A DNA stretch of 36,224 nt. Origin: an uncultured Acidobacteriota bacterium (GTDB taxonomy: Bacteria; Acidobacteriota; Thermoanaerobaculia; Multivoradales; SZUA-115). How positions within the stretch are numbered: position 1 is the stretch's first letter; each line of letters opens with the position of its first letter. Below, one piece after another: positions 5,233-24,018 of the stretch. The notes under the pieces are model-generated. The model did no database searches, had not been told where the DNA came from, and was given only the letters and a program-made list of their open reading frames with translations. Both the position numbers and the translations under genes were made by a program. The DNA is taken from assembly GCA_937867335.1 (NCBI GenBank), contig CALMKX010000085.1, forward strand, positions 1 to 36,224, in the 5' to 3' direction.

Positions 5233-6897
5233 CTACGGGGATCGCCACCAGTCTTCGATTTGCCAGAAGCGACGCAGCGCGTTCGGCTGCAGGCCGTGGA
5301 CGCGCCGGTGATAGGCCCCGAGGTCGTGGGCCTCGTAGAGCAAGGTCAGCGGCAGATCCTGGTGCACCAGCTGCTGCACCTCGAGCAGACCCTGGTGGAA
5401 CTCTTCCAGGGTGGCCGCGTTGCGGGTCTTCTCGAGCAGGCGATCCATCTGGGGGCTCGAGTAGCCGAAGATGTTCTGCGCTCGGCCGATCGACTCGGTG
5501 GCGAGAGCGAAGGAGAGGTCGAGGTCGGTGGGCATGGTCCAGCGCGCCAGCAGCGCATCGAACTCGCCCCGATCGGCCTGCTCCATCAGCGGGTTGAAAG
5601 CCACGAAACGCAGCTGGGCGTCGACGCCCACCTTGCGCAGCTGCTGCTGGATGAGGATCAGGGCGTCCTGGCGCTGGGGATTGCCCGAGTTGGTGGCGAG
5701 CTCGAAGCGGAAGGGCTTGCCGCCGCGATCCAGGATGCCGTCGCCGTCAATGTCCCGGAAGCCCTCGGCGGCGAGGATCTCGCGCGCCTTGGCCGGATCG
5801 TAGGGCCAGGGCTTGAGGCTGCGGTCGTAGGCCCAGACGTCGGAGATGATCAGTGAGTTGCTGAGCTTGCCGTAGCGGCCGTAGATCGCCTCCACCAGAG
5901 ACTCGCGATCGATCGCCAGGGTCAAGGCCCGGCGTGCCGCGGGGGAGTGGAACAGTTCGCGGCGAGTGTTCCAGGCCACGAACGCGAAGCTCCTCGACAG
6001 CCAGGAGACGACGCCGAGGGAGGGCTGGGCTTCGATCCGCTTGACGTCGCTGGGAGTGATGCCGAACACCACATCGAGGTTGTCGGCCAGAAACTCGGCG
6101 ACCAGGCTGCTGACTTCCGGCACCACTCGGATCACCACTTTGTCGAGGTAGGGCGGGTGGGGGGAGCGGAAGTGCGGGTTGGGGGCAAGCACCAGCTCCT
6201 GCTGCCGGGCCCAGCTCTCCACGGTGTAGGGGCCGCTGGTCGCCAGGTGCTCGACGAACCAGTCGTCGTTGCTATGCCAGCGGGCGAACGGCAGCTGGCT
6301 CCAGAGATGGCGGGGGAGGATCTGCCCTTCGTTGATCTGCAGCAAAGGGTTCGCCGTCCGCCGGCTCAGGTGGAACTTCACCGTGGCCTTGTCCACCACC
6401 TCGACGTCGCGGATGAAGCGCTTGAATTGCGAGGAGTCCCAGGCCACCTCGGGGTTGGTCTGCGCCTGCCAGGTGTAGCGGATATCCTCGGCGTCGATCG
6501 GCGTTCCATCGCTCCAGAGAGCGTCCTTCTGCAGATGGAAGGTCACCGTCAGGCCGTCGGGGGAGATCTCCCAGCTCTCGGCGAGGTCTGGGCCGAAAGT
6601 GGGTGGGTGATCGGTGTAGTCGGGGTTCTCCCGCAGCAGCTGGCGGAAGAGCACCGAGGCGATCTCCTGGGTCACGGTGGTGCTCAAGGTGCTGTAGGGG
6701 TTGATGCTGCCGATGTCGGCGGTGACCCCGACCACCACCCTCCCGCCGGCGACCGGATTCTCTGCCGCCGGAGCCGGCACCGGGGTGGGTGCCGCCGGTG
6801 CGGATCCGCCGCCACAGGCGGCGAGCAGCAGCCAGGCGAACCCCAGGACCCCGCCGCTGAGGGCGGCGATCGGGCGCTTCCAAGCTGCTTGCTTCAT
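5233..6897 (-). CDS. Family-5 extracellular solute-binding lipoprotein of a peptide ABC importer
   Basis: This 554-aa protein captures the substrate outside the inner membrane for the DppB/DppC channel. The N-terminus is a lipoprotein signal with lipobox LAAC (Cys28), followed by a Pro/Ala linker. The mature part has the SBP_bac_5 pattern: VAGGRVVVGVTADIGSINPY, FGPDLAESWEISPDGLTVTFHLQKDALWSDGTPIDAEDIRYTW, the mid-domain AFVAWNTRRELFHSPAARRALTLAIDRESLVEAIYG, and a D-rich loop (DIDGDGILDRGG) inserted in lobe II. Such calcium-like DxDGDG loops recur in family 5 proteins. It is the first gene of the minus-strand operon and is divergent from the MarR gene. A weak GATAAC -10-like element (6909-6914, minus) sits close to the start. 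Confidence 0.94.
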   Translation of the reverse strand: MKQAAWKRPIAALSGGVLGFAWLLLAACGGGSAPAAPTPVPAPAAENPVAGGRVVVGVTADIGSINPYSTLSTTVTQEIASVLFRQLLRENPDYTDHPPTFGPDLAESWEISPDGLTVTFHLQKDALWSDGTPIDAEDIRYTWQAQTNPEVAWDSSQFKRFIRDVEVVDKATVKFHLSRRTANPLLQINEGQILPRHLWSQLPFARWHSNDDWFVEHLATSGPYTVESWARQQELVLAPNPHFRSPHPPYLDKVVIRVVPEVSSLVAEFLADNLDVVFGITPSDVKRIEAQPSLGVVSWLSRSFAFVAWNTRRELFHSPAARRALTLAIDRESLVEAIYGRYGKLSNSLIISDVWAYDRSLKPWPYDPAKAREILAAEGFRDIDGDGILDRGGKPFRFELATNSGNPQRQDALILIQQQLRKVGVDAQLRFVAFNPLMEQADRGEFDALLARWTMPTDLDLSFALATESIGRAQNIFGYSSPQMDRLLEKTRNAATLEEFHQGLLEVQQLVHQDLPLTLLYEAHDLGAYHRRVHGLQPNALRRFWQIEDWWRSP

Positions 6898-6987
6898 AGC
6901 TCTTCGAGGTTATCACGGGCGATTGCCGCGCCGGATCGGCGGTCGCTACGGCGAAGCGGTGATTTCCGCCACTTTCGAGGCCGCGCC

Positions 6988-7016
6988 TTGCCTGTGGCGG
7001 CAAGATCCTGTATAGT
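6988..7016 (+). promoter_or_regulatory. Sigma-70-type promoter of the MarR gene
   Basis: The -35 box TTGCCT (6988-6993) and -10 box TATAGT (7011-7016) are separated by exactly 17 bp. The -10 overlaps the left end of the palindrome at 7015-7029. The expected start of transcription is only about 6-8 bases before the ATG at 7031, leaving no room for a Shine-Dalgarno site, so the mRNA would be nearly leaderless. Confidence 0.65.
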
Positions 7017-7029
7017 TGTGACTACCAAC
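7015..7029. promoter_or_regulatory. Operator palindrome O1, probably bound by the adjacent MarR protein
   Basis: The 15-mer GTTGTGACTACCAAC is an inverted repeat (GTTG...CAAC; 5+5 bases when the flanking A/T are counted). It covers the edge of the -10 box and the predicted transcription start of the MarR gene, an ideal site for autorepression. A second copy lies at 7558-7572. Confidence 0.65.
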
Positions 7030-7030
7030 T

Positions 7031-7540
7031 ATGACGCCCTCCACCGCCAATTCGGATCCCGGCCTCGAGGCCGATGCCCAGGAGCTCCACGCCGCTCTTT
7101 CCGAGCTGGTGCGGGTCTACCAGTTCCGGGATCGGGATCGCATCTGCTGCCACGACGTTTCGGTGACACAGTGCCATGCCCTCGAAGCTCTGCTCGAGCG
7201 CGGACCGCTCACCTTGAGCGCCCTGGCGGGCGAGCTCTTCCTGGACAAAAGCACCGCCAGCCGCGTGGTGGCCACCCTCGAGCGCAAGGGCTACGCCGCG
7301 AGGGCCACGCATCCGGAGGATTCCCGGGCCGTGCTGCTGACGGCGACCGCCGCCGGGCGGGAGCTCTGCCGCCGCATCGAGCACCAGCTTGTGCTCGAGG
7401 AGCGAGAGCTCGTCGCAGACCTCGAGCCGGAAGTGCGGCGAGGGGCGGCCCTGCTGCTGCGCCGTCTGGCCAGGGCCGCGCGCAGGCGCTCGGGCCTCGG
7501 CGGCGAGCAAGGCGAGCCAGCGTGTTGCTGCGAGAGTTGA
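7031..7540 (+). CDS. MarR-family winged-helix regulator with clustered cysteines
   Basis: This 169-aa dimeric DNA-binding repressor is of the MarR type. The winged helix is clear: SVTQCHALEALLERGPLTLSALAGELFLDKSTASRVVATLERKGYAARATHPEDSRAVLLTATAAGREL, with recognition helix DKSTASRVVATLERKG and wing HPEDSRA. Unusual features are an N-terminal pair Cys39-Cys40, Cys48, and a CCC run at 165-167 near the end, which together suggest soft-metal, metalloid or thiol-oxidant sensing. The ATG at 7031 sits directly after the operator, so the message is close to leaderless. An internal start is possible but would cut into helix 1. The gene is followed 46 bp later by a flavoprotein with a cysteine-rich tail and the same operator. 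The natural inducer is unknown. Confidence 0.93.
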   Translation: MTPSTANSDPGLEADAQELHAALSELVRVYQFRDRDRICCHDVSVTQCHALEALLERGPLTLSALAGELFLDKSTASRVVATLERKGYAARATHPEDSRAVLLTATAAGRELCRRIEHQLVLEERELVADLEPEVRRGAALLLRRLARAARRRSGLGGEQGEPACCCES

Positions 7541-7557
7541 GTTTTTTTGCCGTGATC

Positions 7558-7572
7558 GTTGCTAGTGACAAC
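7558..7572. promoter_or_regulatory. Operator palindrome O2 in front of the flavoprotein gene
   Basis: GTTGCTAGTGACAAC, read on the minus strand, gives GTTGTCACTAGCAAC. This matches O1 (GTTGTGACTACCAAC) at 13 of 15 positions; the two differences are a symmetric pair. It lies 14 bp before the flavoprotein ATG and just upstream of the AAAGGAG ribosome site (7574-7580). A weak promoter TTGAGT (7537-7542)-17-TGCTAG (7560-7565) overlaps it. Confidence 0.65.
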
Positions 7573-7586
7573 CAAAGGAGTCTGCC

Positions 7587-8900
7587 ATGAGCCATAGCGA
7601 TCTTCCCGTCGTCGTACTCGGAGCCGGTCCAGTGGGGTTGGCTGCCGCGGCGCACTTGCTCGAGCGAGCGCTCGAGCCCCTGGTCCTCGAAGCTGGAGAC
7701 CGCGTGGGAGCGAGTGTTCTCGAGTGGGGGCAGGTGCGGATGTTCTCGCCCTGGAGATTCGTCGTCGACCGTGCCGCTGGGGTGCTGCTGGCCCGTCATG
7801 GCTGGACGCCACCCGAGGGCGAGGGCTTCCCGACCGGCCGGGACCTGGTGGAGCGCTACCTCGAGCCTCTGGCCGCCCTGCCAGAGCTGGCGAGCCGCGT
7901 CCGCCTGCGTACCCGAGCCCTGGCCGTGTCGAGGAGCGGCTTCGACCTGCTCAAGACCCGCGGTCGCGAGGCGGCGCCGTTCGTGGTGCGGGCCGAGACC
8001 GCAGAGGGCGAGATCGAGCTGGCGGCCCAGGCCGTGGTGGACGCCTCCGGCACCTGGCGTAACCCCAACCCGCTGGGGGCGAGCGGCCTGCCTGCCTTCG
8101 GCGAGGGGGCGGCCCGCGAGCGCATCTTCTACGGCATTCCGGACGTTCTGGGCGCCGAGCGTGAGCGCTACGCCGGCAAGCGGGTGCTGGTGGTGGGTAG
8201 CGGCCACTCGGCCCTGAATGCGCTGCTCGATCTCGCCGGCCTGGCCGAGCAGGCGCCGGCCACGCGGATCTACTGGGCGCTCCGCCGGGAGCGGTTGGGC
8301 AACCTCTTCGGGGGCGGCCGGCGGGATGGGCTGGCGGAGCGGGGGCGGCTGGGCGAGCGCGCCGAAGCGTTGCTTTCGAGCGGCGGCATCGAGCTCGTGA
8401 CCGGCTTCAGCCTCGAGCGGCTCCGGCTCCACGAGGACGGGCTTCTGGCCGAGGGGGGCGGGCGGGTGATCGGCCCGCTGGACGAGATCATCGCCACCAC
8501 CGGCTTCCGGCCGGATCTCGGCCTCACCCGCGAGCTGCGCCTGGAGCTCGATCCGGTGACGGAAGCCCCGGTGCGCCTGGCCGGGCTGATCGACCCGAAC
8601 GTGCACAGCTGCGGCACGGTGCCCCCTCACGGCGCGGTGGAGCTCGGCCACCCGGAGCCCGGCTACTTCGCCGTGGGCATGAAGAGCTACGGCCGGGCTC
8701 CCACCTTCCTGTTGCTCACCGGCTACGAGCAGGCGAGGTCCGTGGCGGCCGCCCTGGCGGGAGACTGGGAGGCCGCCCGCCGGGTGGAGCTCCAGCTGCC
8801 GGAGACCGGGGTCTGCGTCACGGATGCACTGGCCGCGGCTTGCTGCAACGGCGAGTGCGCCCGCCCGGCGGCCGAGCGGGCCGGGGGGTGCTGCTCGTGA
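7587..8900 (+). CDS. FAD/NAD(P)-dependent flavoprotein with cysteine-rich C-terminal tail
   Basis: This 437-aa two-dinucleotide-domain flavoprotein is in the broad thioredoxin-reductase/flavin-monooxygenase class. The FAD-binding Rossmann motif is GAGPVGLAAAAHLL (about residues 10-23), and the NADPH motif is VLVVGSGHSALNAL (GxGxxA, about 200-214). ATTGFRPDLG is the conserved ATG motif that closes the FAD site. The last 30 residues hold seven cysteines (410, 419, 420, 424, 435, 436 and the first in GVCVTD), including CC pairs. Similar flavoproteins, as far as I recall, occur beside arsenic-resistance regulators (ArsO-like), so a role with metalloids or thiols is plausible but not shown. AAAGGAG precedes the ATG at good spacing. 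It is probably repressed by the upstream MarR protein through O2. Confidence 0.9.
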   Translation: MSHSDLPVVVLGAGPVGLAAAAHLLERALEPLVLEAGDRVGASVLEWGQVRMFSPWRFVVDRAAGVLLARHGWTPPEGEGFPTGRDLVERYLEPLAALPELASRVRLRTRALAVSRSGFDLLKTRGREAAPFVVRAETAEGEIELAAQAVVDASGTWRNPNPLGASGLPAFGEGAARERIFYGIPDVLGAERERYAGKRVLVVGSGHSALNALLDLAGLAEQAPATRIYWALRRERLGNLFGGGRRDGLAERGRLGERAEALLSSGGIELVTGFSLERLRLHEDGLLAEGGGRVIGPLDEIIATTGFRPDLGLTRELRLELDPVTEAPVRLAGLIDPNVHSCGTVPPHGAVELGHPEPGYFAVGMKSYGRAPTFLLLTGYEQARSVAAALAGDWEAARRVELQLPETGVCVTDALAAACCNGECARPAAERAGGCCS

Positions 8901-8918
8901 GCCTCGCCGGTCCTGGCC

Positions 8919-11096
8919 TCAGGGCTTGAGCCAGCGGTCGAAGAACTCGGTCATCCGCTGGTAGAAGTGGCGTTCGTTCTTGCCGGCGATGGCGTGGGTC
9001 GAGCCGGGGTAGATCGCTTCCTCGAACGGGATGCCTTCCTCGATCAGAGCCTGGCTCAGGTTGAGGGTGTTCTGCGGGTGGACGTTGTCGTCCGCCGTGC
9101 CGTGCACCAGGAGCAGGTGATCCTTGAGGTTCTTGGCGTAGGTGATGGGCGAAGAGGCCTTGTAGCCGTCCGGGTTCCCGTCGGGGCTGTCGAGGTAGCG
9201 CTCGGTCCAGATCGAATCGTAGAGGTGCCAGTCGGTGACCGGCGCGCCGGCCACTGCCGCCTTCCACACCCCGGGGCGGGTCAGGAGAGCCATCAGCGTG
9301 TTGCTGCCGCCGCCGGACCAGCCCCAGAGGCCGATGCGGTCCGGGTCCACGTAGGTCTGGGTCTTCAAGAACTCCACCGCGGCCAGCTGGGCGTCGGTGT
9401 TGAAGCTGCCGAAGGCGCGGTGCACCTGGTCCTCGCCCTTCTTGCCGAAGCAGGCGGTGGTGGCGTTGTCCACGCTCAGCACCACGTAGCCACGCTGGGC
9501 CATCATGCGATGCCAGAGGTCCCGGGAGTTGCCCTCCCAGCGGTTCACCACCACCTGCGAGCCGGGCCCGCCGTAGTGGTAGACGATCACCGGATAGCGC
9601 TTGTTGGCGTCGAACGGCACCGGCCTCAGGATCCGCGCCGGCAGCCGCGTGCCATCGAGGCCCCAGAGGGTGAGGAACTCCCAGCTCGGCAGCATGGAAG
9701 CCGAGAAGGCCGGCTCCGGGCCGGTGGGCAGGCTCGAGAGGCGAGTGCCGTCGGCGCGCACCACGGTGCGTTTGGGAACCTGGGAGGCCGAGCTGGCGGT
9801 GTGCAGCCAGTACCGGGCGCCGGGGGCCACCAGAGCCTCGTTCCAGCCGTGCTCGGGAGTGATCGGCTGGGACTGCGTGCCATCGATCTTCACCCGGTAG
9901 ACCCGGCGGTGAATGCCACCCGAGGCCGGTGAGGAGAAGCCGGTGAAATACACCCAGCCACTGGCTTCGTCCACGGCGTCCACCGAGGTGACCGCCCAGT
10001 TGCCGGCGGTGAGCTGGCGCACCAGCTTGCCGTCCGGGCCGAGCAGGCTGAGGTGGCGAAAGCCGGTCTGCTCCGAGCTCCAGAGCAGGTTGCCGTCCTT
10101 GAGGAATTGGTTGTCGTCCGAGAGGTTGATCCAGGTGGGATAGCTCTCGGTGACCGGAATGGCGCAGCGCCCCTTCTGCGTGTCGCAGACCAGCAGATCG
10201 AGGTGGTTCTGCTCCCGGTTCAAGCGCTCGATCGCCAGGCGGTCGCCCTGGGGCAGCCAGTAGATGCGGGCGAGGTAGGCGTCCGGCACGGTGCCGGTAT
10301 CGACCTTGACGCTCTTGCCGGAGGCGACGTCCGCCACCCGGATTTCCACCTTCGGGTTGGCGCGGCCGGCCTTGGGGTACTTCTGCCAGCGCACGGCAGG
10401 GTAGAGCGGCTGGTAGTCGGTGAGCGCGTAGGTCTCCACTCCGGCCTCGTCGAAGCGGTAGTAGGCGAGGCGCTTGCCGTCCGGGCTCCACCAGAAAGCC
10501 GCAGGATGGCGGTTCCAGATCTCCTCCCAGTAGATCCAGTCGCAGACGCCGTTCAACACCGAGTCCTTCTTGCCATCGCGAGTGAGGGCTTTCTCCTTGC
10601 CGCTCGCGAGGTCGAGCACCCAGAGGTTGGCGTCGCGGGAGTAGGCGAGGCGGCTGCCGTCCGGCGAGAAAGTCGGACCTTGCTCCACCTTGCCGAGGCC
10701 GGGCAGGGGCTTCAAGGCGCGCGTCGAGGGGTCCCACAGCAGGTAGTTGTCGCCACTCGTAACCAGGAGGCGGTCTCCCTTGGGCGACCACTGGTAGGAG
10801 TCGAGCTTGGCTTCCGGGAGGTCTTTGGCGGAGATCAGGGCCTGAGGCTGGCCAGTCTCGGCCGCGAAGCTCCAGAGGGTGAGGGTACCTTCGGCATCGG
10901 GAAGCAGATAGCTGAGGCGGTCGCCGTCCGGGTGCCAGGCGATCTGCTTGGGCCAGCTTCCGGGGCGGTTCTCCGCGAAGATTTGATCGAAGCTCAGTAC
11001 CTCGCTACCGGCCTGGGCTGCGGGGGTGGGCTGGGCGCTGAGCATCAGGGGCAGGCCCAGCAGGGAGAGGGCCAGGCTTTGCAGGGTCTTGGGCAT
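8919..11096 (-). CDS. Secreted S9B-family dipeptidyl peptidase (DPP IV-like)
   Basis: This 725-aa serine exopeptidase removes N-terminal dipeptides, usually X-Pro or X-Ala. It has a signal peptide of about 26 residues (ending AQPTPAAQA), then an eight-bladed DPPIV N-terminal propeller with repeats such as SPDGSRLAYSRDANLWVLDLASG. The double-Glu anchor is present in DWIYWEEIWNR, followed by the alpha/beta-hydrolase domain. The catalytic triad is visible: Ser594 in GLWGWSGGGS, Asp669 in HGTADDNVHP, His701 in STHAIAG. I chose the ATG at 11096 rather than the upstream one at 11207 because GAGGAGGAG lies just before it and the signal peptide begins there. It would supply di- and tripeptides, which fits the importer upstream, though the two are not one operon. 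Confidence 0.95.
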   Translation of the reverse strand: MPKTLQSLALSLLGLPLMLSAQPTPAAQAGSEVLSFDQIFAENRPGSWPKQIAWHPDGDRLSYLLPDAEGTLTLWSFAAETGQPQALISAKDLPEAKLDSYQWSPKGDRLLVTSGDNYLLWDPSTRALKPLPGLGKVEQGPTFSPDGSRLAYSRDANLWVLDLASGKEKALTRDGKKDSVLNGVCDWIYWEEIWNRHPAAFWWSPDGKRLAYYRFDEAGVETYALTDYQPLYPAVRWQKYPKAGRANPKVEIRVADVASGKSVKVDTGTVPDAYLARIYWLPQGDRLAIERLNREQNHLDLLVCDTQKGRCAIPVTESYPTWINLSDDNQFLKDGNLLWSSEQTGFRHLSLLGPDGKLVRQLTAGNWAVTSVDAVDEASGWVYFTGFSSPASGGIHRRVYRVKIDGTQSQPITPEHGWNEALVAPGARYWLHTASSASQVPKRTVVRADGTRLSSLPTGPEPAFSASMLPSWEFLTLWGLDGTRLPARILRPVPFDANKRYPVIVYHYGGPGSQVVVNRWEGNSRDLWHRMMAQRGYVVLSVDNATTACFGKKGEDQVHRAFGSFNTDAQLAAVEFLKTQTYVDPDRIGLWGWSGGGSNTLMALLTRPGVWKAAVAGAPVTDWHLYDSIWTERYLDSPDGNPDGYKASSPITYAKNLKDHLLLVHGTADDNVHPQNTLNLSQALIEEGIPFEEAIYPGSTHAIAGKNERHFYQRMTEFFDRWLKP

Positions 11097-17744: not shown

Positions 17745-17773
17745 TTGTCTTTGGTTGTAACAGGCAGTACACT
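17745..17773 (+). promoter_or_regulatory. Sigma-70-type promoter of the first IPTL-CTERM gene
   Basis: TTGTCT (17745-17750) and TACACT (17768-17773) are separated by 17 bp. This predicts a leader of about 50 bases before the ATG at 17829. Confidence 0.55.
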
Positions 17774-17828
17774 GCCGCGCCAGATCATCTGCCCATTGCC
17801 AAATTCCCTTCTGCAGGGGGTTCTTGTG

Positions 17829-20800
17829 ATGAAAGCTCGGCGTGTGTCTTTCGACGCTCTCGTTCGGATAAGTGTGCTCACAGCTCTGCTGGTCGCGTGT
17901 GGCTCCTCGGCCTGGGCGGCCGGCCCGCCGTTGAGCCTGGTGGACATCGGCGGCGGGGGCGAGGTGAAGGGTGGGCCGCCGGCAGACAAGCCGCTCGCCC
18001 CCTACCGCTCCGGCCGAGGGATCTACGCGCCAACCGGCCAAGGCTTCGTTTCCGAGGTGGAGCCCAACAACACCGCGGCCACGGCCACGCCCCTCGGCGG
18101 CACCAACGTAGTGGTGCGAGCCAACATCTTCCCCAACGGCGACATCGACTTCTTCTCGTTCACGGCCGGCGCCGGGGATCGCGTCTACGCCGCCACCATG
18201 ACCAGCTTCTCGGCCAACGCTTCGTCCGACAGCCAGCTGGACGTGATCGCGAGCGACGGTACCACTTCGCTCGAGTTCGACGACGACGACGGCAGCCTGG
18301 GCGGCCTTTCCTCCTCGATCGCCGGCGTGACCATCCCCTCGGCCGGCACCTATTACCTGCGGGTCAAGCACTTCAGCGCCACCAATCAGCTGCGCCCCTA
18401 CGACCTCCACCTTCGGGTGCAGAGCGGCACACCGACCGCGGAGGTGGAGCCCAACAACACGCCGGCCACGGCGACCCCGCTGCCCGCTTCGGGTTGGGTG
18501 AGCGGCAGCGTCAACCCGGCGGCGGACGCGGACTTCTTCAGCCTGACACTCGCGGCGGGCGATACCGTGTACCTCTCCCTCGACATGAACCCCGAGCGCG
18601 ACGCCACCACCTGGAACGGCCGTCTCGGCCTCGCCCTCTTCGGCACGGCCTTGAACCAGATCCTGGTGGTCAACGATGCCAGCACCACATCGCCCAACTC
18701 CGAGGCCTTCTTCTTCACGGTCAAGGATGCCGGCACCTACTTTGCCTACGTCGACGAGCCGGCGGCGGGCGGCGGTGCCGCCTTCACCTACCACCTGAGC
18801 GTGAGCGTCCACCCGAACACGGCGGCCACCGCCAACTGCACCACTTACACTTCGACCGACGTGCCGCAGACGATCCCCACCGGCCCCGGCCAGGTGAACT
18901 CGACCATCGTGGTGCCGGGCAGCCATCGCATCGCCGATCTCGATCTGCGGGTGCAGCTCAACCACACCAACATGCCGGACCTCGACGTCCACCTGATCTC
19001 GCCGCAGGGCAACGACAACGGCGTGTTCACTGACATCGGCGCAGCCGCCCAGACGGCGATGGACACCCTCTTCGACGACGAGGCCGGCATTCCCGCTGGA
19101 GTCTTCACGGTGGTCTCGCCCACCGGCTTCGAGCCGGAGCTCGCCTACCGGCTGGGCTGGTACGACGGCGAGGACGCCGGCGGCACCTGGACACTCGCCA
19201 TCCGTGACGATACGGCGGCCAACGGCGGCACCTTGACCGCCTGGAGCCTCACCGTCTGTGAGCCGCCGCCGCCGCCCGCCTGCCCGCCGGGCTTCGGCGT
19301 GACCACGGTCTACACCAACGACTTCGAGGCCGGAACGGGAGGCTTCACCCACTCCGGGACCCAAGACGAATGGGCCCGCGGTCTGCCGACCTTCGCGCCG
19401 ATCACCACCTGCAACAGCGGCTCGAACTGCTGGAAGACGGACCTCGCCAACACCTACAACGCCTCGAGCAACCAGGATCTGCTCTCGCCCAACATCAATC
19501 TGGCCGGCCTGGTGGCTCCGGTGACCGTCACCTGGGCGCAGCGCTATCAGATGGAGAACACCTCCTTCGACCACTATTCGGTGGACATCCGCCAGGTGGG
19601 AGTGCCCACCAACGCTCAGCGCCTGTACGAGTGGCTCGACGCCACCATGACTGACACCGTGGGCAACCCCACCGTGACCTTGAACGAGAGCGCGGGTTGG
19701 GGCACGTTCAGCAAACAGGCCGACAGCTTCGCGGGCCTCAACACCGAGCTGGTCTTCCACCTGGACAGCGACACCACGGTGCAGCTCGCCGGTGCGGCGG
19801 TGGACGACGTGACTGTCACCGCCTGTCGCCAGCTGATGGCGGACCTTTCGATCACCAAGACCGACGGCGTAACCACCGCGGTGCCGGGCGGCAGCGTGAC
19901 CTACACCATCACGGCCTCGAACGCCGGCCCGGACGCGGCCAACCCGGCCACCGTGGCGGATACCTTCCCGGCCATCCTCACCTGCACCTGGACCTGCGTG
20001 GGAGCGGGCGGTGGCACCTGCACGGCTTCGGGCTCGGGCAACATCAACGACGCCACGGTGAACCTGCCGAGCGGCGGCTCGGTGACCTACACGGCCAGCT
20101 GCACCATCTCGGCTTCGGCCACCGGCTCGCTCTCGAACACGGCGACCGTGTCGAGCTCGATCACGGACCCCGTCCCCGGCAACAACTCGGCGACCGACAC
20201 CGACACACTCACGCCGATGGCCGACCTCTCGATCACCAAGACGGACGGCGTGACCAGCGTGGTGCCCGGAACCAGCACCACCTACACCATCACGGCGTCG
20301 AACGCCGGGCCCTCGAACGCTCCGGGCTCGACGGTGGCGGATACCTTCCCGGCCAACTGCGGCAGCGTGACCTGGACTTGCACGGGAGCCGGCGGCGGCA
20401 CCTGCACGGCCTCCGGCTCCGGCAACATCAACCAGACGGTGAATCTGCCGGTCGGCGGCTCGGTGACCTTCAGTGCGGTCTGCAGCGTTCCGGCCGCGGC
20501 CACCGGTTCTCTGACGAACACCGCTACAGTGACCTCCGGCACGGGCGTGACGGATCCCACTCCGGGCAACAACAGCGCCACGGACTCCGACACCCTTACC
20601 CCGATGGGCGATCTCTCGATCACCAAGACGGACGGCTTGACCACCGCCACTCCGGGCCAGGCCACTACCTACACGATCGTGGTCACCAATCCGGGGCCCT
20701 CGAACGGCGTGGGCCTCTTCGTGAGCGATACCTTCCCCGCAGCCTTCACCAGCCCGACCTGGACCTGCGCGGGGGCGGGCGGTGGCACTTGCACGGCGAG

Positions 20801-21542
20801 CGGCAGCGGCAACATCTCCGATACCGTGAACCTGCCGGCGGGTGCGACGGTGACCTACACCGTCAACGGCACCATCTCGAACGCCTTCACCGGCACGCTC
20901 TCCAACACTGCGACGGTGGCGGTGAGCCCACCGAGCCCGCCGAACGGGAATCCCCCGGGCTTCACGGACCCCAATCTGGCCAACAACACCGCGACCGACA
21001 ATACGGACGTGGTGGCCGCGCCGCCGGTGGTGAGCGGTACCAAGGCGGTAGCCGGCGACTTCCGGCCGGGTGGGGCGATCACCTACACGGTGGTGCTCAG
21101 TAACACGGGCACCGGCGCTCAGGCGGACAACCCGGGCAACGAGTTCACGGACGTGCTGCCGGCCCAGCTGACGCTGGTTTCGGCTTCCGCCACCAGCGGC
21201 ACGGCGGTGGCCACGGTGGCGACCAACACGGTGACCTGGAACGGCTCGATTCCGGCTGGCGGCTCGGTGACCATCACCATCCAGGCGACGATCAACGCCG
21301 ACGCCTCCGGCACCGTCACGAACCAGGGAACTGTGAGCTACGACGCCGATGGCAACGGCACCAACGAGGCCACCGCGCTGACCGACGATCCCAGCGTGGG
21401 CGGCAACCAGGACCCCACGGACCTGGTAGTGGGCATCAACCCCCTCGCGATCCCCACCCTCTCGAGCTGGGGCCTTGCAGCGATGGCGCTGCTGATGGCG
21501 GGCCTGGCGGTGGTGGCACTCGCGCGGAGGCGCCGGGCCTAG
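17829..21542 (+). CDS. Large secreted PPC/P-domain/DUF11 protein with IPTL-CTERM sorting tail
   Basis: This 1237-aa surface or matrix protein has a signal peptide (MKARRVSFDALVRISVLTALLVACGSSAWAA) that contains a possible lipobox LVAC, but a signal peptidase I site after AWAA is equally likely. Two pre-peptidase C-terminal (PPC) domains follow (about 74-195 and 204-324, each opening with EVEPNNT). Next are a proprotein-convertase P domain (about 335-477), a beta-sandwich region (490-667), three DUF11 repeats (about 671-795, 797-927, 927-1060, each with ITKTDG and a TWTC...GGGTCTA cysteine pair) and a fourth DUF11-like unit. The tail is IPTLSSWGLAAMALL plus a helix and ARRRRA, the IPTL-CTERM signal processed by XrtH exosortases. 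No protease domain is present, although P and PPC domains usually accompany proteases. The start at 17829 follows GCAGGGGG. Confidence 0.93.
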   Translation: MKARRVSFDALVRISVLTALLVACGSSAWAAGPPLSLVDIGGGGEVKGGPPADKPLAPYRSGRGIYAPTGQGFVSEVEPNNTAATATPLGGTNVVVRANIFPNGDIDFFSFTAGAGDRVYAATMTSFSANASSDSQLDVIASDGTTSLEFDDDDGSLGGLSSSIAGVTIPSAGTYYLRVKHFSATNQLRPYDLHLRVQSGTPTAEVEPNNTPATATPLPASGWVSGSVNPAADADFFSLTLAAGDTVYLSLDMNPERDATTWNGRLGLALFGTALNQILVVNDASTTSPNSEAFFFTVKDAGTYFAYVDEPAAGGGAAFTYHLSVSVHPNTAATANCTTYTSTDVPQTIPTGPGQVNSTIVVPGSHRIADLDLRVQLNHTNMPDLDVHLISPQGNDNGVFTDIGAAAQTAMDTLFDDEAGIPAGVFTVVSPTGFEPELAYRLGWYDGEDAGGTWTLAIRDDTAANGGTLTAWSLTVCEPPPPPACPPGFGVTTVYTNDFEAGTGGFTHSGTQDEWARGLPTFAPITTCNSGSNCWKTDLANTYNASSNQDLLSPNINLAGLVAPVTVTWAQRYQMENTSFDHYSVDIRQVGVPTNAQRLYEWLDATMTDTVGNPTVTLNESAGWGTFSKQADSFAGLNTELVFHLDSDTTVQLAGAAVDDVTVTACRQLMADLSITKTDGVTTAVPGGSVTYTITASNAGPDAANPATVADTFPAILTCTWTCVGAGGGTCTASGSGNINDATVNLPSGGSVTYTASCTISASATGSLSNTATVSSSITDPVPGNNSATDTDTLTPMADLSITKTDGVTSVVPGTSTTYTITASNAGPSNAPGSTVADTFPANCGSVTWTCTGAGGGTCTASGSGNINQTVNLPVGGSVTFSAVCSVPAAATGSLTNTATVTSGTGVTDPTPGNNSATDSDTLTPMGDLSITKTDGLTTATPGQATTYTIVVTNPGPSNGVGLFVSDTFPAAFTSPTWTCAGAGGGTCTASGSGNISDTVNLPAGATVTYTVNGTISNAFTGTLSNTATVAVSPPSPPNGNPPGFTDPNLANNTATDNTDVVAAPPVVSGTKAVAGDFRPGGAITYTVVLSNTGTGAQADNPGNEFTDVLPAQLTLVSASATSGTAVATVATNTVTWNGSIPAGGSVTITIQATINADASGTVTNQGTVSYDADGNGTNEATALTDDPSVGGNQDPTDLVVGINPLAIPTLSSWGLAAMALLMAGLAVVALARRRRA
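19841..21005 (+). repeat. Three tandem DUF11-coding repeats of about 390 bp
   Basis: Units at roughly 19841-20217, 20218-20607 and 20608-21005 each encode (A/G)DLSITKTDG, TYTI, the TWTC...GGGTCTASGSGNI loop, LSNTATV and (P)GNNSATD. Nucleotide similarity between the units is high, and a fourth copy of the same module lies in the next gene at about 23120-23490. Confidence 0.85.
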
Positions 21543-21801: not shown

Positions 21802-24018
21802 ATGAAGGGTATTCGTCGTCTACCTCAGGGTTGGTGCTTGGTGGCCCTGGCCCTGTGCTCGCTAGCTGCTGCTCCGGCCTGGGCTGGAGTGAAGGAGCAA
21901 AATTACCAGGAGATGATCAGCCTGGCCCGGCAAATGGAAAGTCTGAAGCCGACGATCGCCACGGACTCGGTGGCTGCGGCCCAGTACGCCACGGCCGAGG
22001 CCCGGTACCGGCAGATTTCCGACTCGATGGGCGGCGACGACCCCGGCCACGTGATCGCCCATCGCGGCCAGAGCGCGCGGCATCTGGGCCGGCGGGTGGT
22101 GCGCGTGGTGCCTGCTTCGCCTCCGGGCTGCGGTGCCACCACCACGAACTTCGCCAACAACACACCGGTGGCGATCCCGACGGGCCCCGCCGTGGTGACC
22201 TCGACCATCGTTGTCTCGGGAGCGGGGAGCTACCTCTGGGACTTGGACATGACCACCGGCCTGCAGCACACTTTCGCTGCGGACCTGGACATCACGCTGA
22301 TGTCGCCGGCGGGAACCATTGTCACGATCACCACCGACAACGGTGCGGGCAACGACAACGTGTTCGACGGCACGCTCTGGGATGACGACGCCAACCCGGC
22401 CGGTCAGGTGCCCTACACCGCCAACAATGGCCTGGTGACCGACCAAACCTACGCGAACCTCACCTTGGCGAGCCCGTTGGTGCCGGAAGAGGCGATGGCG
22501 GCGTTCGTGGGCGAGAACCCGAACGGCACCTGGACCCTGACCATCAGCGACGACCTGGCCGGCGATGGCGGCTCCCTCAACTCCTGGAGCCTCGCAGTCA
22601 CCACCTTCCCGAGCGCGCCGATCGTCACCAACGTCAACTTCGCGAACAACACCCCGGTGGCGATTCCCACCGGCCCGGCGGTGGTGACCTCGACCATCGC
22701 GGCGGCCGGCGCGGGCACGGCGATCTGCGATGTCAACCTCACCACCGGCATTCAGCACACCTTCGCGGCCGACCTGGACATGACCCTGCAGTCCCCGGCC
22801 GGCACGGTGGTGACGCTGAGCACGGACAACGGTGCGGGCAACGACAACGTGTTCGACGGCACGGTGTGGGACGACGACGCCAACCCGGCCGGCCAGGTGC
22901 CCTACACCACCAACAACGGCCTGGTGACCGACCACGCCTACGTCAACCTCACGCTGGCGAGCCCGCTGGTGCCGGAGGAGGCGATGGGTGCGTTCCTCGG
23001 TGAGGATCCGAACGGCACCTGGACGATGACGATCAGCGACGACCTGGCGGGCGACGGCGGCAGCCTCAACAGCTGGAGCCTGGCGATCGCCACTTGCACT
23101 TGCGCCATCAACGTGGACGACTCGATCACCAAGACGGACGGCCTGACCACCGCGGCGCCCGGCCAGGCGTCCACCTACACCATCACGGTAAGCAACGCCG
23201 GCCCGAATGCGGATCCGGCGGCGGTGGTGGCGGATACCTTCCCGGCGGGCTTCACGGGTGCTACTTGGACCTGCGTGGGTGCGGGCGGCGGCACCTGCAC
23301 GGCAGCCGGCGCGGGCAACATCAACGACGTGGTGAACTTGCCCTCGGGCGGCTCGGTGACGTACACGGTTTCGGGGACGATCTCGAACGCGTTCGTGGGT
23401 ACGCTGTCGAACACCGCGACGGTGACGGCGAGCGGCGGGGTGACCGATACGAACACGGGGAACAACTCGGCGCAAGACGACACGTCGGTTGTCTCGGCGG
23501 CCAGCCTGGTCGCCAACAAGGCGGTATCCGGGCAGTTCCAGCCGGGCGGGGCGATCACCTACACGGTGGTGATCTTCAACAATTCGAGCGCAGCCCAGCT
23601 GGACAACCCGGGCGATGAGTTCACCGACGTCCTGCCGGCGGACCTCACGCTGGTGAGCGCCTCGGCCACCAGCGGCACGGCGACCACGGCGGGCAACACG
23701 GTCATGTGGAATGGCTCGGTCCCGGGCCTCAGCTCGGTGACGATCACCATCGACGCCACGATCAACAACACGGTGGTGGCCGGTACCACGATCACCAACC
23801 AAGGCATGGTTCATTACGATGCGGACGGCAACGGCACCAACGAGACCACGGGGTCGACCGACGATCCGGCGACGACCGAGGAAGGCGACCCGACCAGCAT
23901 CGTGGTGATCCAGAGCGCCCTCGGCATCCCGACGCTGTCGAGCTGGGGTCTCGGCCTGATGGCCTTGCTGCTCGCCGCCTTCGCGGCGATGACGCTGGCT
24001 CGCCGGCGCCGCGCCTGA
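21802..24018 (+). CDS. Secreted double P-domain/DUF11 protein with IPTL-CTERM sorting tail
   Basis: This 738-aa paralogue of the previous gene begins with a signal peptide (MKGIRRLPQGWCLVALALCSLAAAPAWA). A unique helical segment of about 80 residues follows (NYQEMISLARQMESL, then AAQYATAEARYRQI). Next are two adjacent, nearly identical P-domain-like units (about 109-268 and 273-431; both with NNTPVAIPTGPAVVTSTI, GAGNDNVFDGT and NPNGTWT/DPNGTWT). One DUF11 repeat (about 440-563) and a DUF11-like unit precede the tail IPTLSSWGLGLMALLLAAFAAMTLARRRRA. The tail should be recognised by an exosortase and the protein fixed at or released from the cell surface. It has its own promoter and long leader, and ends at a strong terminator, so it is a single-gene unit. 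Confidence 0.93.
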   Translation: MKGIRRLPQGWCLVALALCSLAAAPAWAGVKEQNYQEMISLARQMESLKPTIATDSVAAAQYATAEARYRQISDSMGGDDPGHVIAHRGQSARHLGRRVVRVVPASPPGCGATTTNFANNTPVAIPTGPAVVTSTIVVSGAGSYLWDLDMTTGLQHTFAADLDITLMSPAGTIVTITTDNGAGNDNVFDGTLWDDDANPAGQVPYTANNGLVTDQTYANLTLASPLVPEEAMAAFVGENPNGTWTLTISDDLAGDGGSLNSWSLAVTTFPSAPIVTNVNFANNTPVAIPTGPAVVTSTIAAAGAGTAICDVNLTTGIQHTFAADLDMTLQSPAGTVVTLSTDNGAGNDNVFDGTVWDDDANPAGQVPYTTNNGLVTDHAYVNLTLASPLVPEEAMGAFLGEDPNGTWTMTISDDLAGDGGSLNSWSLAIATCTCAINVDDSITKTDGLTTAAPGQASTYTITVSNAGPNADPAAVVADTFPAGFTGATWTCVGAGGGTCTAAGAGNINDVVNLPSGGSVTYTVSGTISNAFVGTLSNTATVTASGGVTDTNTGNNSAQDDTSVVSAASLVANKAVSGQFQPGGAITYTVVIFNNSSAAQLDNPGDEFTDVLPADLTLVSASATSGTATTAGNTVMWNGSVPGLSSVTITIDATINNTVVAGTTITNQGMVHYDADGNGTNETTGSTDDPATTEEGDPTSIVVIQSALGIPTLSSWGLGLMALLLAAFAAMTLARRRRA
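22126..23094 (+). repeat. Tandem duplication of a P-domain-coding unit, about 480 bp each
   Basis: Copies at about 22126-22610 and 22620-23094 are highly similar at nucleotide level, including an identical run of more than 30 bases that encodes NGAGNDNVFDG in both copies (near 22340 and 22829). This indicates a recent or conversion-maintained duplication. Confidence 0.85.

What the first reader, a model, noticed from the sequence alone, without database searches (positions are those of the whole stretch)
7011..8900. A cysteine-rich MarR regulator and a cysteine-tailed flavoprotein sharing one operator: candidate soft-metal or thiol-stress module
Seen: the regulator has Cys39-Cys40, Cys48 and a CCC run at 165-167; the flavoprotein ends with seven cysteines in 27 residues; both promoters carry the same 15-bp palindrome. 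Known: MarR proteins autoregulate through such palindromes and sense oxidants or ligands through Cys; ArsO-like flavoproteins sit in arsenic loci. Inference: the repressor senses a metalloid, soft metal or electrophile and releases an NADPH-dependent flavoprotein that handles the same agent, with the cysteine tail as delivery or binding site.
Basis: partly seen in the sequence, partly recalled or inferred. Interest (0 to 1): 0.72.

Follow-up and report, generated by a model that had tools for sequence, protein, structure and literature searches.

The report
Arsenic-linked MarR switch with cysteine-tailed flavoprotein
A two-gene unit in which a cysteine-bearing MarR-family repressor, not the usual ArsR type, appears to switch on an arsenic-cluster flavoenzyme; relatives of both proteins sit beside arsenic-detoxification and arsenic-antibiotic genes in several bacterial phyla, so it looks like an under-recognised class of arsenic sensor.

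Summary
The MarR gene (7031-7540) and flavoprotein gene (7587-8900) each follow a GTTG-N7-CAAC palindrome. The first overlaps the -10 box of a TTGCCT-N17-TATAGT promoter.

Comparative evidence points to arsenic rather than generic thiol stress. Among 80 flavoprotein homologues, 57 loci carry ars-type genes. MarR homologues found independently of the flavoprotein sit beside arsenic genes (arsM, arsN1/N2, the arsQ-arsL-arsM arsinothricin cluster, arsC) in 14 of 17 loci. In this MarR group Cys48 is invariant and Cys39/Cys40 are at least 90% conserved. An exact operator occurs upstream of marR in 18 of 24 loci and again between marR and the next gene in 12 of 24, against about 0.04 expected. Other relatives of the same flavoprotein have ArsR instead.

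Best reading: a MarR-family repressor senses a trivalent arsenical, probably organic, through a Cys39/Cys40/Cys48 thiol site and releases an NADPH/FAD enzyme that converts the agent. Ligand and reaction are inferred. The flavoprotein fails the curated ArsO test; ArsV is the likeliest known match but could not be tested. The operator format equals MexR's. New variant of a known kind.

The parts
6988..7016 (+). sigma-70-like promoter of marR: TTGCCT-N17-TATAGT
   Evidence: Only promoter-like site in 6890-9000; 0.1 expected. Same layout, usually with TTGACA/TTGACG, in most homologous loci.
7013..7031 (.). operator O1, TAGTTGTGACTACCAACTA (core GTTG-N7-CAAC at 7015-7029), overlapping the -10 box by 2 bp
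   Evidence: conserved upstream of marR homologues.
7031..7540 (+). MarR-family regulator, 169 aa (P0001)
   Evidence: PF01047 49.8 bits, cut-off 24.6; MarR fold by AlphaFold and Foldseek.
7145..7150 (+). codons of Cys39-Cys40, end of helix 1
   Evidence: At least 90% conserved in A1; helix 10-41 in the model.
7172..7174 (+). codon of Cys48, start of helix 2
   Evidence: Invariant in 24 MarR homologues; helix 45-57 in the model.
7523..7531 (+). codons of Cys165-Cys167, disordered C-terminus
   Evidence: Most homologues have one or more Cys here, often CC, but position and number vary; pLDDT below 50.
7542..7548 (+). T7 tract between marR stop and O2; in some relatives the U-run of a clear terminator hairpin
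   Evidence: hairpin weak in the window itself.
7558..7572 (.). operator O2, GTTGCTAGTGACAAC, before the flavoprotein gene
   Evidence: second copy also present in many homologous loci.
7574..7579 (+). ribosome-binding-site-like AAAGGA
   Evidence: Read from the sequence.
7587..8900 (+). FAD/NAD(P)H two-dinucleotide-domain flavoprotein, 437 aa (P0002)
   Evidence: PF13738 39.9 bits, cut-off 30; model pLDDT 89; 57 of 80 homologue loci carry ars-type genes.
8610..8612 (+). codon of Cys342 (NVHSCGTV motif)
   Evidence: Invariant in 60 homologues.
8808..8894 (+). cysteine tail GVC...CC...C...CC (Cys410, 419, 420, 424, 435, 436)
   Evidence: Cys410 invariant, Cys419-Cys420 at least 90% conserved; variable Cys-rich tails in nearly all relatives; disordered in the model.

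Best explanation
This is a self-contained arsenical-inducible unit. The MarR dimer sits on O1, over the -10 box of its own promoter, and on O2 in front of the flavoprotein gene, and keeps both silent. A trivalent arsenical binds the Cys39/Cys40/Cys48 thiols at the junction of helices 1 and 2 and releases the repressor. The flavoprotein, an NAD(P)H- and FAD-binding enzyme with a cysteine tail, then detoxifies the same agent, most likely by oxidising a trivalent organoarsenical such as methylarsenite (as reported for ArsV). The tail probably captures or hands over the arsenical. Shown here by sequence: the genes, promoter, operators and their conservation, the cysteine conservation and the arsenic-gene association. 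Inferred: repressor sign, ligand, binding-site geometry, reaction and tail function.
For: Flavoprotein homologues: 57 of 80 loci carry arsR, arsC, acr3, arsB, arsH, arsD, arsA, arsM or arsN, cluster identities confirmed on representatives against NCBIfam cut-offs, ArsR by Pfam. MarR homologues found with P0001 alone: ars genes adjacent in 14 of 17 loci; in seven arsM is the next gene. The two complete regions without ars genes (L115, L116) are also the ones that have lost one Cys of the Cys39-Cys40 pair. Operator: spacing of exactly 7, 18 of 24 upstream and 12 of 24 downstream, about 0.04 and 0.03 expected; absent from 69 flavoprotein loci without this MarR and from three unrelated MarR genes of the same genome. 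Regulator swap: the same enzyme is next to ArsR in other loci. A Cys pair at the same junction also occurs in much more distant MarRs at ars loci. ArsV oxidises methylarsenite and ArsW exports methylarsenate per a review (PMC10080717); an MFS gene follows the flavoprotein in many loci.
Against: No expression, binding or enzyme data. The window pair stands alone: no other ars gene recognised in the 36 kb, and no acr3 or arsB detected in the genome. No ArsV sequence was available, so enzyme identity is open. The nearest solved fold is the bacillithiol disulfide reductase Bdr/YpdA, so a reductase is possible. 23 of the 80 flavoprotein loci show no ars gene in the DNA held, some on very short contigs. 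GTTG-N7-CAAC is also the MexR operator format (PMC9892617), so the operator shows regulation, not the ligand.
Confidence: 0.65

Rival explanations
1. A general thiol-oxidation switch like OhrR or MexR: oxidants or electrophiles modify Cys39/40/48, and the flavoprotein is a disulfide or electrophile reductase.
For: The nearest solved fold is Bdr/YpdA. MarR proteins with redox cysteines are well known (own knowledge), and the operator format equals MexR's.
Against: Arsenic genes dominate the recognised neighbours of both proteins. The OhrR and YpdA curated cut-offs are not met. The three-Cys set resembles three-thiol arsenic sites of ArsR proteins (PMC11868830).
Confidence: 0.15
2. An inorganic arsenite or antimonite sensor; the flavoprotein acts on As(III) or Sb(III) rather than on organic arsenicals. 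This is a variant of the best explanation and overlaps with it.
For: Some loci carry arsC, acr3, arsB, arsD and arsA. Three thiols suit As(III). arsV was among the more induced genes under Sb(III) in Achromobacter sp. As-55 (PMC11719878).
Against: Immediate partners of this MarR are mostly arsM, arsN1/N2 and the flavoprotein.
Confidence: 0.3
3. A different soft-metal module (Hg, Cu, Cd): the cysteines bind a metal ion and the flavoprotein is a metal-ion reductase similar to mercuric reductase.
For: Cysteine-rich tail and NAD(P)H/FAD domains.
Against: No mer gene was recognised among the common neighbour clusters, and arsenic genes recur.
Confidence: 0.04
4. The window copy is a relic or re-purposed pair, cut off from arsenic metabolism.
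For: Housekeeping neighbours on both sides; no acr3 or arsB in the genome.
Against: Both reading frames, all key cysteines, the promoter and both operators are intact.
Confidence: 0.08

Closest known systems
ArsV (NADPH-dependent flavin monooxygenase, Paracoccus sp. SY) with ArsW (exporter)
   Same: Reported enzyme that oxidises methylarsenite, working with an exporter of methylarsenate (review PMC10080717). Relatives of our protein are often followed by an MFS gene.
   Different: Original papers and sequence are not held, so identity is untested. The window has no MFS gene next to it and uses MarR.
ArsR/SmtB arsenic repressors
   Same: Repressors of ars operons with three-thiol arsenic sites (PMC11868830). 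They stand next to the same flavoprotein in other genomes.
   Different: The window regulator is MarR, not HTH_5, and has a GTTG-N7-CAAC operator.
NemR (organoarsenical-selective repressor)
   Same: Named in a review as a repressor selective for trivalent organoarsenicals (PMC10080717).
   Different: TetR family (own knowledge); no sequence relation tested.
MexR of Pseudomonas aeruginosa
   Same: MarR family; its site PII reads TTTAGTTGACCTTATCAACC, i.e. GTTG-N7-CAAC, over promoters (PMC9892617).
   Different: Controls a multidrug pump; only weak sequence similarity (phmmer E about 4e-4).
ArsO flavin monooxygenase (NF040505)
   Same: Two-dinucleotide-domain flavoprotein in ars loci.
   Different: 47 bits against a 425-bit cut-off; a true ArsO is a separate gene in L014 (550 bits).
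Bdr/YpdA bacillithiol disulfide reductase
   Same: Best Foldseek match (TM 0.85 by target, 19% identity).
   Different: Shorter; 37 bits against a 340-bit cut-off.

Membership tests
MarR family | MarR winged-helix domain | tested here: met
   PF01047 49.8 bits, cut-off 24.6; PF12802 49.5, cut-off 27.
MarR family | MarR fold | tested here: met
   AlphaFold pLDDT 86; top Foldseek hits are MarR proteins.
MarR family | inverted-repeat operator overlapping its own promoter | tested here: met
   O1 overlaps the -10 box; conserved in relatives.
MarR family | homodimer binding that operator | not testable with these tools
   Needs protein-DNA work.
ArsR/SmtB family | ArsR HTH_5 domain | tested here: not met
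   No HTH_5 match at E 0.001 for P0001; genuine ArsR neighbours do match.
ArsR/SmtB-like arsenic sensing (works like) | three conserved cysteines able to bind As(III) | tested here: inconclusive
   Cys48 invariant, Cys39/40 at least 90%, close in sequence at the helix 1-2 junction; distances and binding not measured.
ArsO (NF040505) | curated equivalog score of at least 425 bits | tested here: not met
   47.5 bits.
ArsV | sequence orthology to Paracoccus sp. SY ArsV | not tested
   Reference papers and sequence not held.
ArsV | NADPH-dependent oxidation of methylarsenite or Sb(III) | not testable with these tools
   Needs an enzyme assay.
YpdA/Bdr | curated score of at least 339.9 bits (TIGR04018) | tested here: not met
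   37.4 bits.
OhrR | curated OhrR score (NF052638, 200 bits) | tested here: not met
   22.7 bits.

The most novel reading that the evidence does not exclude
A class of MarR-family arsenical sensors, separate from ArsR/SmtB, spread over several phyla. It carries its own thiol site (Cys39/Cys40/Cys48), often repeats its TAGTTG-N7-CAACTA operator before and after the regulator gene, and controls organoarsenical genes (arsM, arsN1, the flavoprotein and probably arsQ-arsL-arsM), i.e. a regulon for making or resisting arsenic-containing antibiotics.
Probability: 0.45. Interest if true: 0.72.

Novelty: new variant of a known kind. Interest (0 to 1): 0.58.

Why it matters
Arsenic regulation in bacteria is usually described through ArsR repressors. 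A MarR class with a recognisable operator would expose regulons that ArsR-based surveys miss, would tie arsenic methylation and arsinothricin genes to a shared regulator type, and would give a testable organoarsenical biosensor part. The same enzyme under two unrelated regulators is also a clear case of regulator exchange.

Tried and rejected
ArsO membership: rejected by curated score. Selenocysteine in the flavoprotein: three phylum relatives were flagged with an in-frame TGA; two of these look like ordinary stops directly after the terminal CC, the third is ambiguous; not pursued. A wider operator regulon in the own genome: only one further WGTTG-N7-CAACW site besides O1 in 5.5 Mb, about what the backwards control gives. 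A canonical arsM in the own genome: only partial or weaker methyltransferase matches. A broad sample of the class of the Achromobacter genome added only one genome beyond the query's own, so this MarR group is rare. Literature for a MarR arsenic repressor: none found in the open-licence library; subscription papers were not searchable.

Full report
WHAT IS THERE. The two genes are real, intact and in the same direction: a MarR-family regulator at 7031-7540 and a flavoprotein at 7587-8900. The neighbours are ordinary: glycine-cleavage and peptide-ABC-transporter genes on one side, a dipeptidyl-peptidase-like gene on the other (read from the translations). The regulator has Cys39, 40, 48, 113 and 165-167.

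OPERATORS. GTTG-N7-CAAC occurs exactly twice in the window, before each gene. Read on opposite strands the two sites agree at 13 of 15 bases. O1 overlaps by 2 bp the -10 box of TTGCCT-N17-TATAGT, the only promoter-like site in the region. In 24 distinct homologous marR loci the motif appears at spacing 7 and essentially no other: 18 exact upstream, 12 exact downstream, with 0.04 and 0.03 expected in shuffles. Several of the remaining loci have a one-mismatch copy or an operator that was missed because the start codon was set differently. O1 follows TTGACA-like and TATAGT-like boxes at N17 in most loci. Controls: 0 of 69 flavoprotein loci without this MarR have the motif in the 180 bp before the gene, and three other MarR genes of the same genome have none. 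The format is that of the MexR site PII (PMC9892617), so it is a known MarR-family design.

CYSTEINES. In 24 MarR homologues Cys48 is invariant and Cys39/Cys40 are at least 90% conserved. The model places Cys39/40 at the end of helix 1 and Cys48 at the start of helix 2. The C-terminal cysteines are common but shift in number and place. Much more distant MarRs next to the flavoprotein in Chloroflexi, Roseateles-like bacteria and Bacilli mostly keep a Cys pair at the same junction and often another near the C-terminus, at 19-30% identity. In the flavoprotein, Cys342 and Cys410 are invariant and Cys419-420 at least 90% conserved among 60 homologues; tail length varies but cysteine-rich tails are nearly universal.

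ARSENIC LINK. Of 80 flavoprotein loci, 57 carry at least one ars-type gene: ArsR in 44, ArsC 28, ACR3 13, ArsN 12, ArsH 8, ArsB 8, ArsM 5. Cluster labels were checked on representatives with NCBIfam and Pfam. To avoid circularity I took MarR homologues found with the MarR protein alone: 14 of 17 have arsenic genes adjacent. In seven arsM is the next gene (L105, L106, L107, L109, L111, L114, L117). Others are marR-arsN1-flavoprotein-MFS (L127), marR-arsN1-flavoprotein-arsDA with a divergent MFS gene (L093), marR-flavoprotein-MFS-arsN (L113), marR-arsN1 (L112), marR-arsN2-arsM (L110), marR beside an arsC/acr3/arsH cluster (L094) and, on a Pseudomonas amygdali plasmid, marR divergent from arsQ-arsL-arsM, the arsinothricin genes (L095). 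Of the three exceptions, one is at a contig end (L108) and two (L115, L116) lack one Cys of the Cys39-40 pair; that is suggestive, with n = 2. More distant Cys-MarRs are also directly upstream of arsM (L089-L091), and one of those (L089) as well as the Chloroflexi type has GTTG-N7-CAAC sites.

ENZYME. It has FAD and NAD(P)H domains and a confident model. It is not ArsO by the curated test, and a true ArsO is a separate gene at L014. The nearest solved fold is Bdr/YpdA. ArsV is the best functional candidate: a review reports that it oxidises methylarsenite, with ArsW exporting the product (PMC10080717). The original papers were not held, so this is a lead, not a test.

MECHANISM. Shown: gene order, promoter, operators, conservation, association. 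Inferred: repression, release by a trivalent arsenical at Cys39/40/48, and oxidation of that arsenical by the flavoprotein with help of its tail. That the same enzyme is found next to ArsR in other genomes, with a different palindrome (of the type ATTCGC...GCGAAT) in one genus of the same phylum, argues that this MarR does the job of ArsR here.

NOVELTY. I found no paper on a MarR-family arsenic repressor in the searchable library; this is weak evidence because subscription journals are missing. Known arsenic sensors named in the papers read are ArsR types (PMC11868830) and NemR (PMC10080717). I rate it a new variant of a known kind.

LIMITS. Locus gene calls for unannotated contigs came from a simple ORF caller. 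Homologue samples are not phylogenetically weighted, and the Achromobacter loci are near-duplicates. Counts of neighbours and operators do not speak to the ligand itself. The structure models are single chains, so cysteine distances across the dimer were not measured.

Noticed in passing
window 7541-7549; L014, L016, L019, L025, L093: A T-run lies 10-20 bases before O2 in many loci; in Achromobacter and Pseudomonas it follows a clear hairpin, so marR seems to end in a terminator just before the second operator, which has no obvious -35 box. How the second gene starts is unexplained.
   Followed up: partly
L095:1308-6507: The MarR homologue on a Pseudomonas amygdali plasmid is divergent from arsQ-arsL-arsM (arsinothricin genes), with a GTTG-N7-CAAC site between them.
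   Followed up: partly
L040, L048, L054, L059, L070 (Bacilli): Cys-MarRs beside the flavoprotein in Bacilli lack the GTTG-N7-CAAC site; some have a TTGCA-rich palindrome instead, e.g. ACTTGCAATTTGCAAGT.
   Followed up: no
L002 and L003, upstream of marR: Three GTTG-N7-CAAC copies in about 110 bp before the Chloroflexi-type marR.
   Followed up: no
L011:5000-5920: An OlsE-like lipid hydroxylase gene lies between marR and the flavoprotein, preceded by O2.
   Followed up: no
L137 (G023:C6): The flavoprotein tail may be interrupted by an in-frame TGA before AGC; selenocysteine or just a shorter protein, not resolved.
   Followed up: partly
window 17745-21542 and 21802-24018: Two large secreted-looking proteins with repeated SITKTDG-type domains and an IPTLSSWG...RRRRA end, as in IPTL-type sorting signals (own knowledge).
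   Followed up: no
L115, L116: MarR homologues without ars neighbours have lost one Cys of the Cys39-40 pair but keep the operator.
   Followed up: partly
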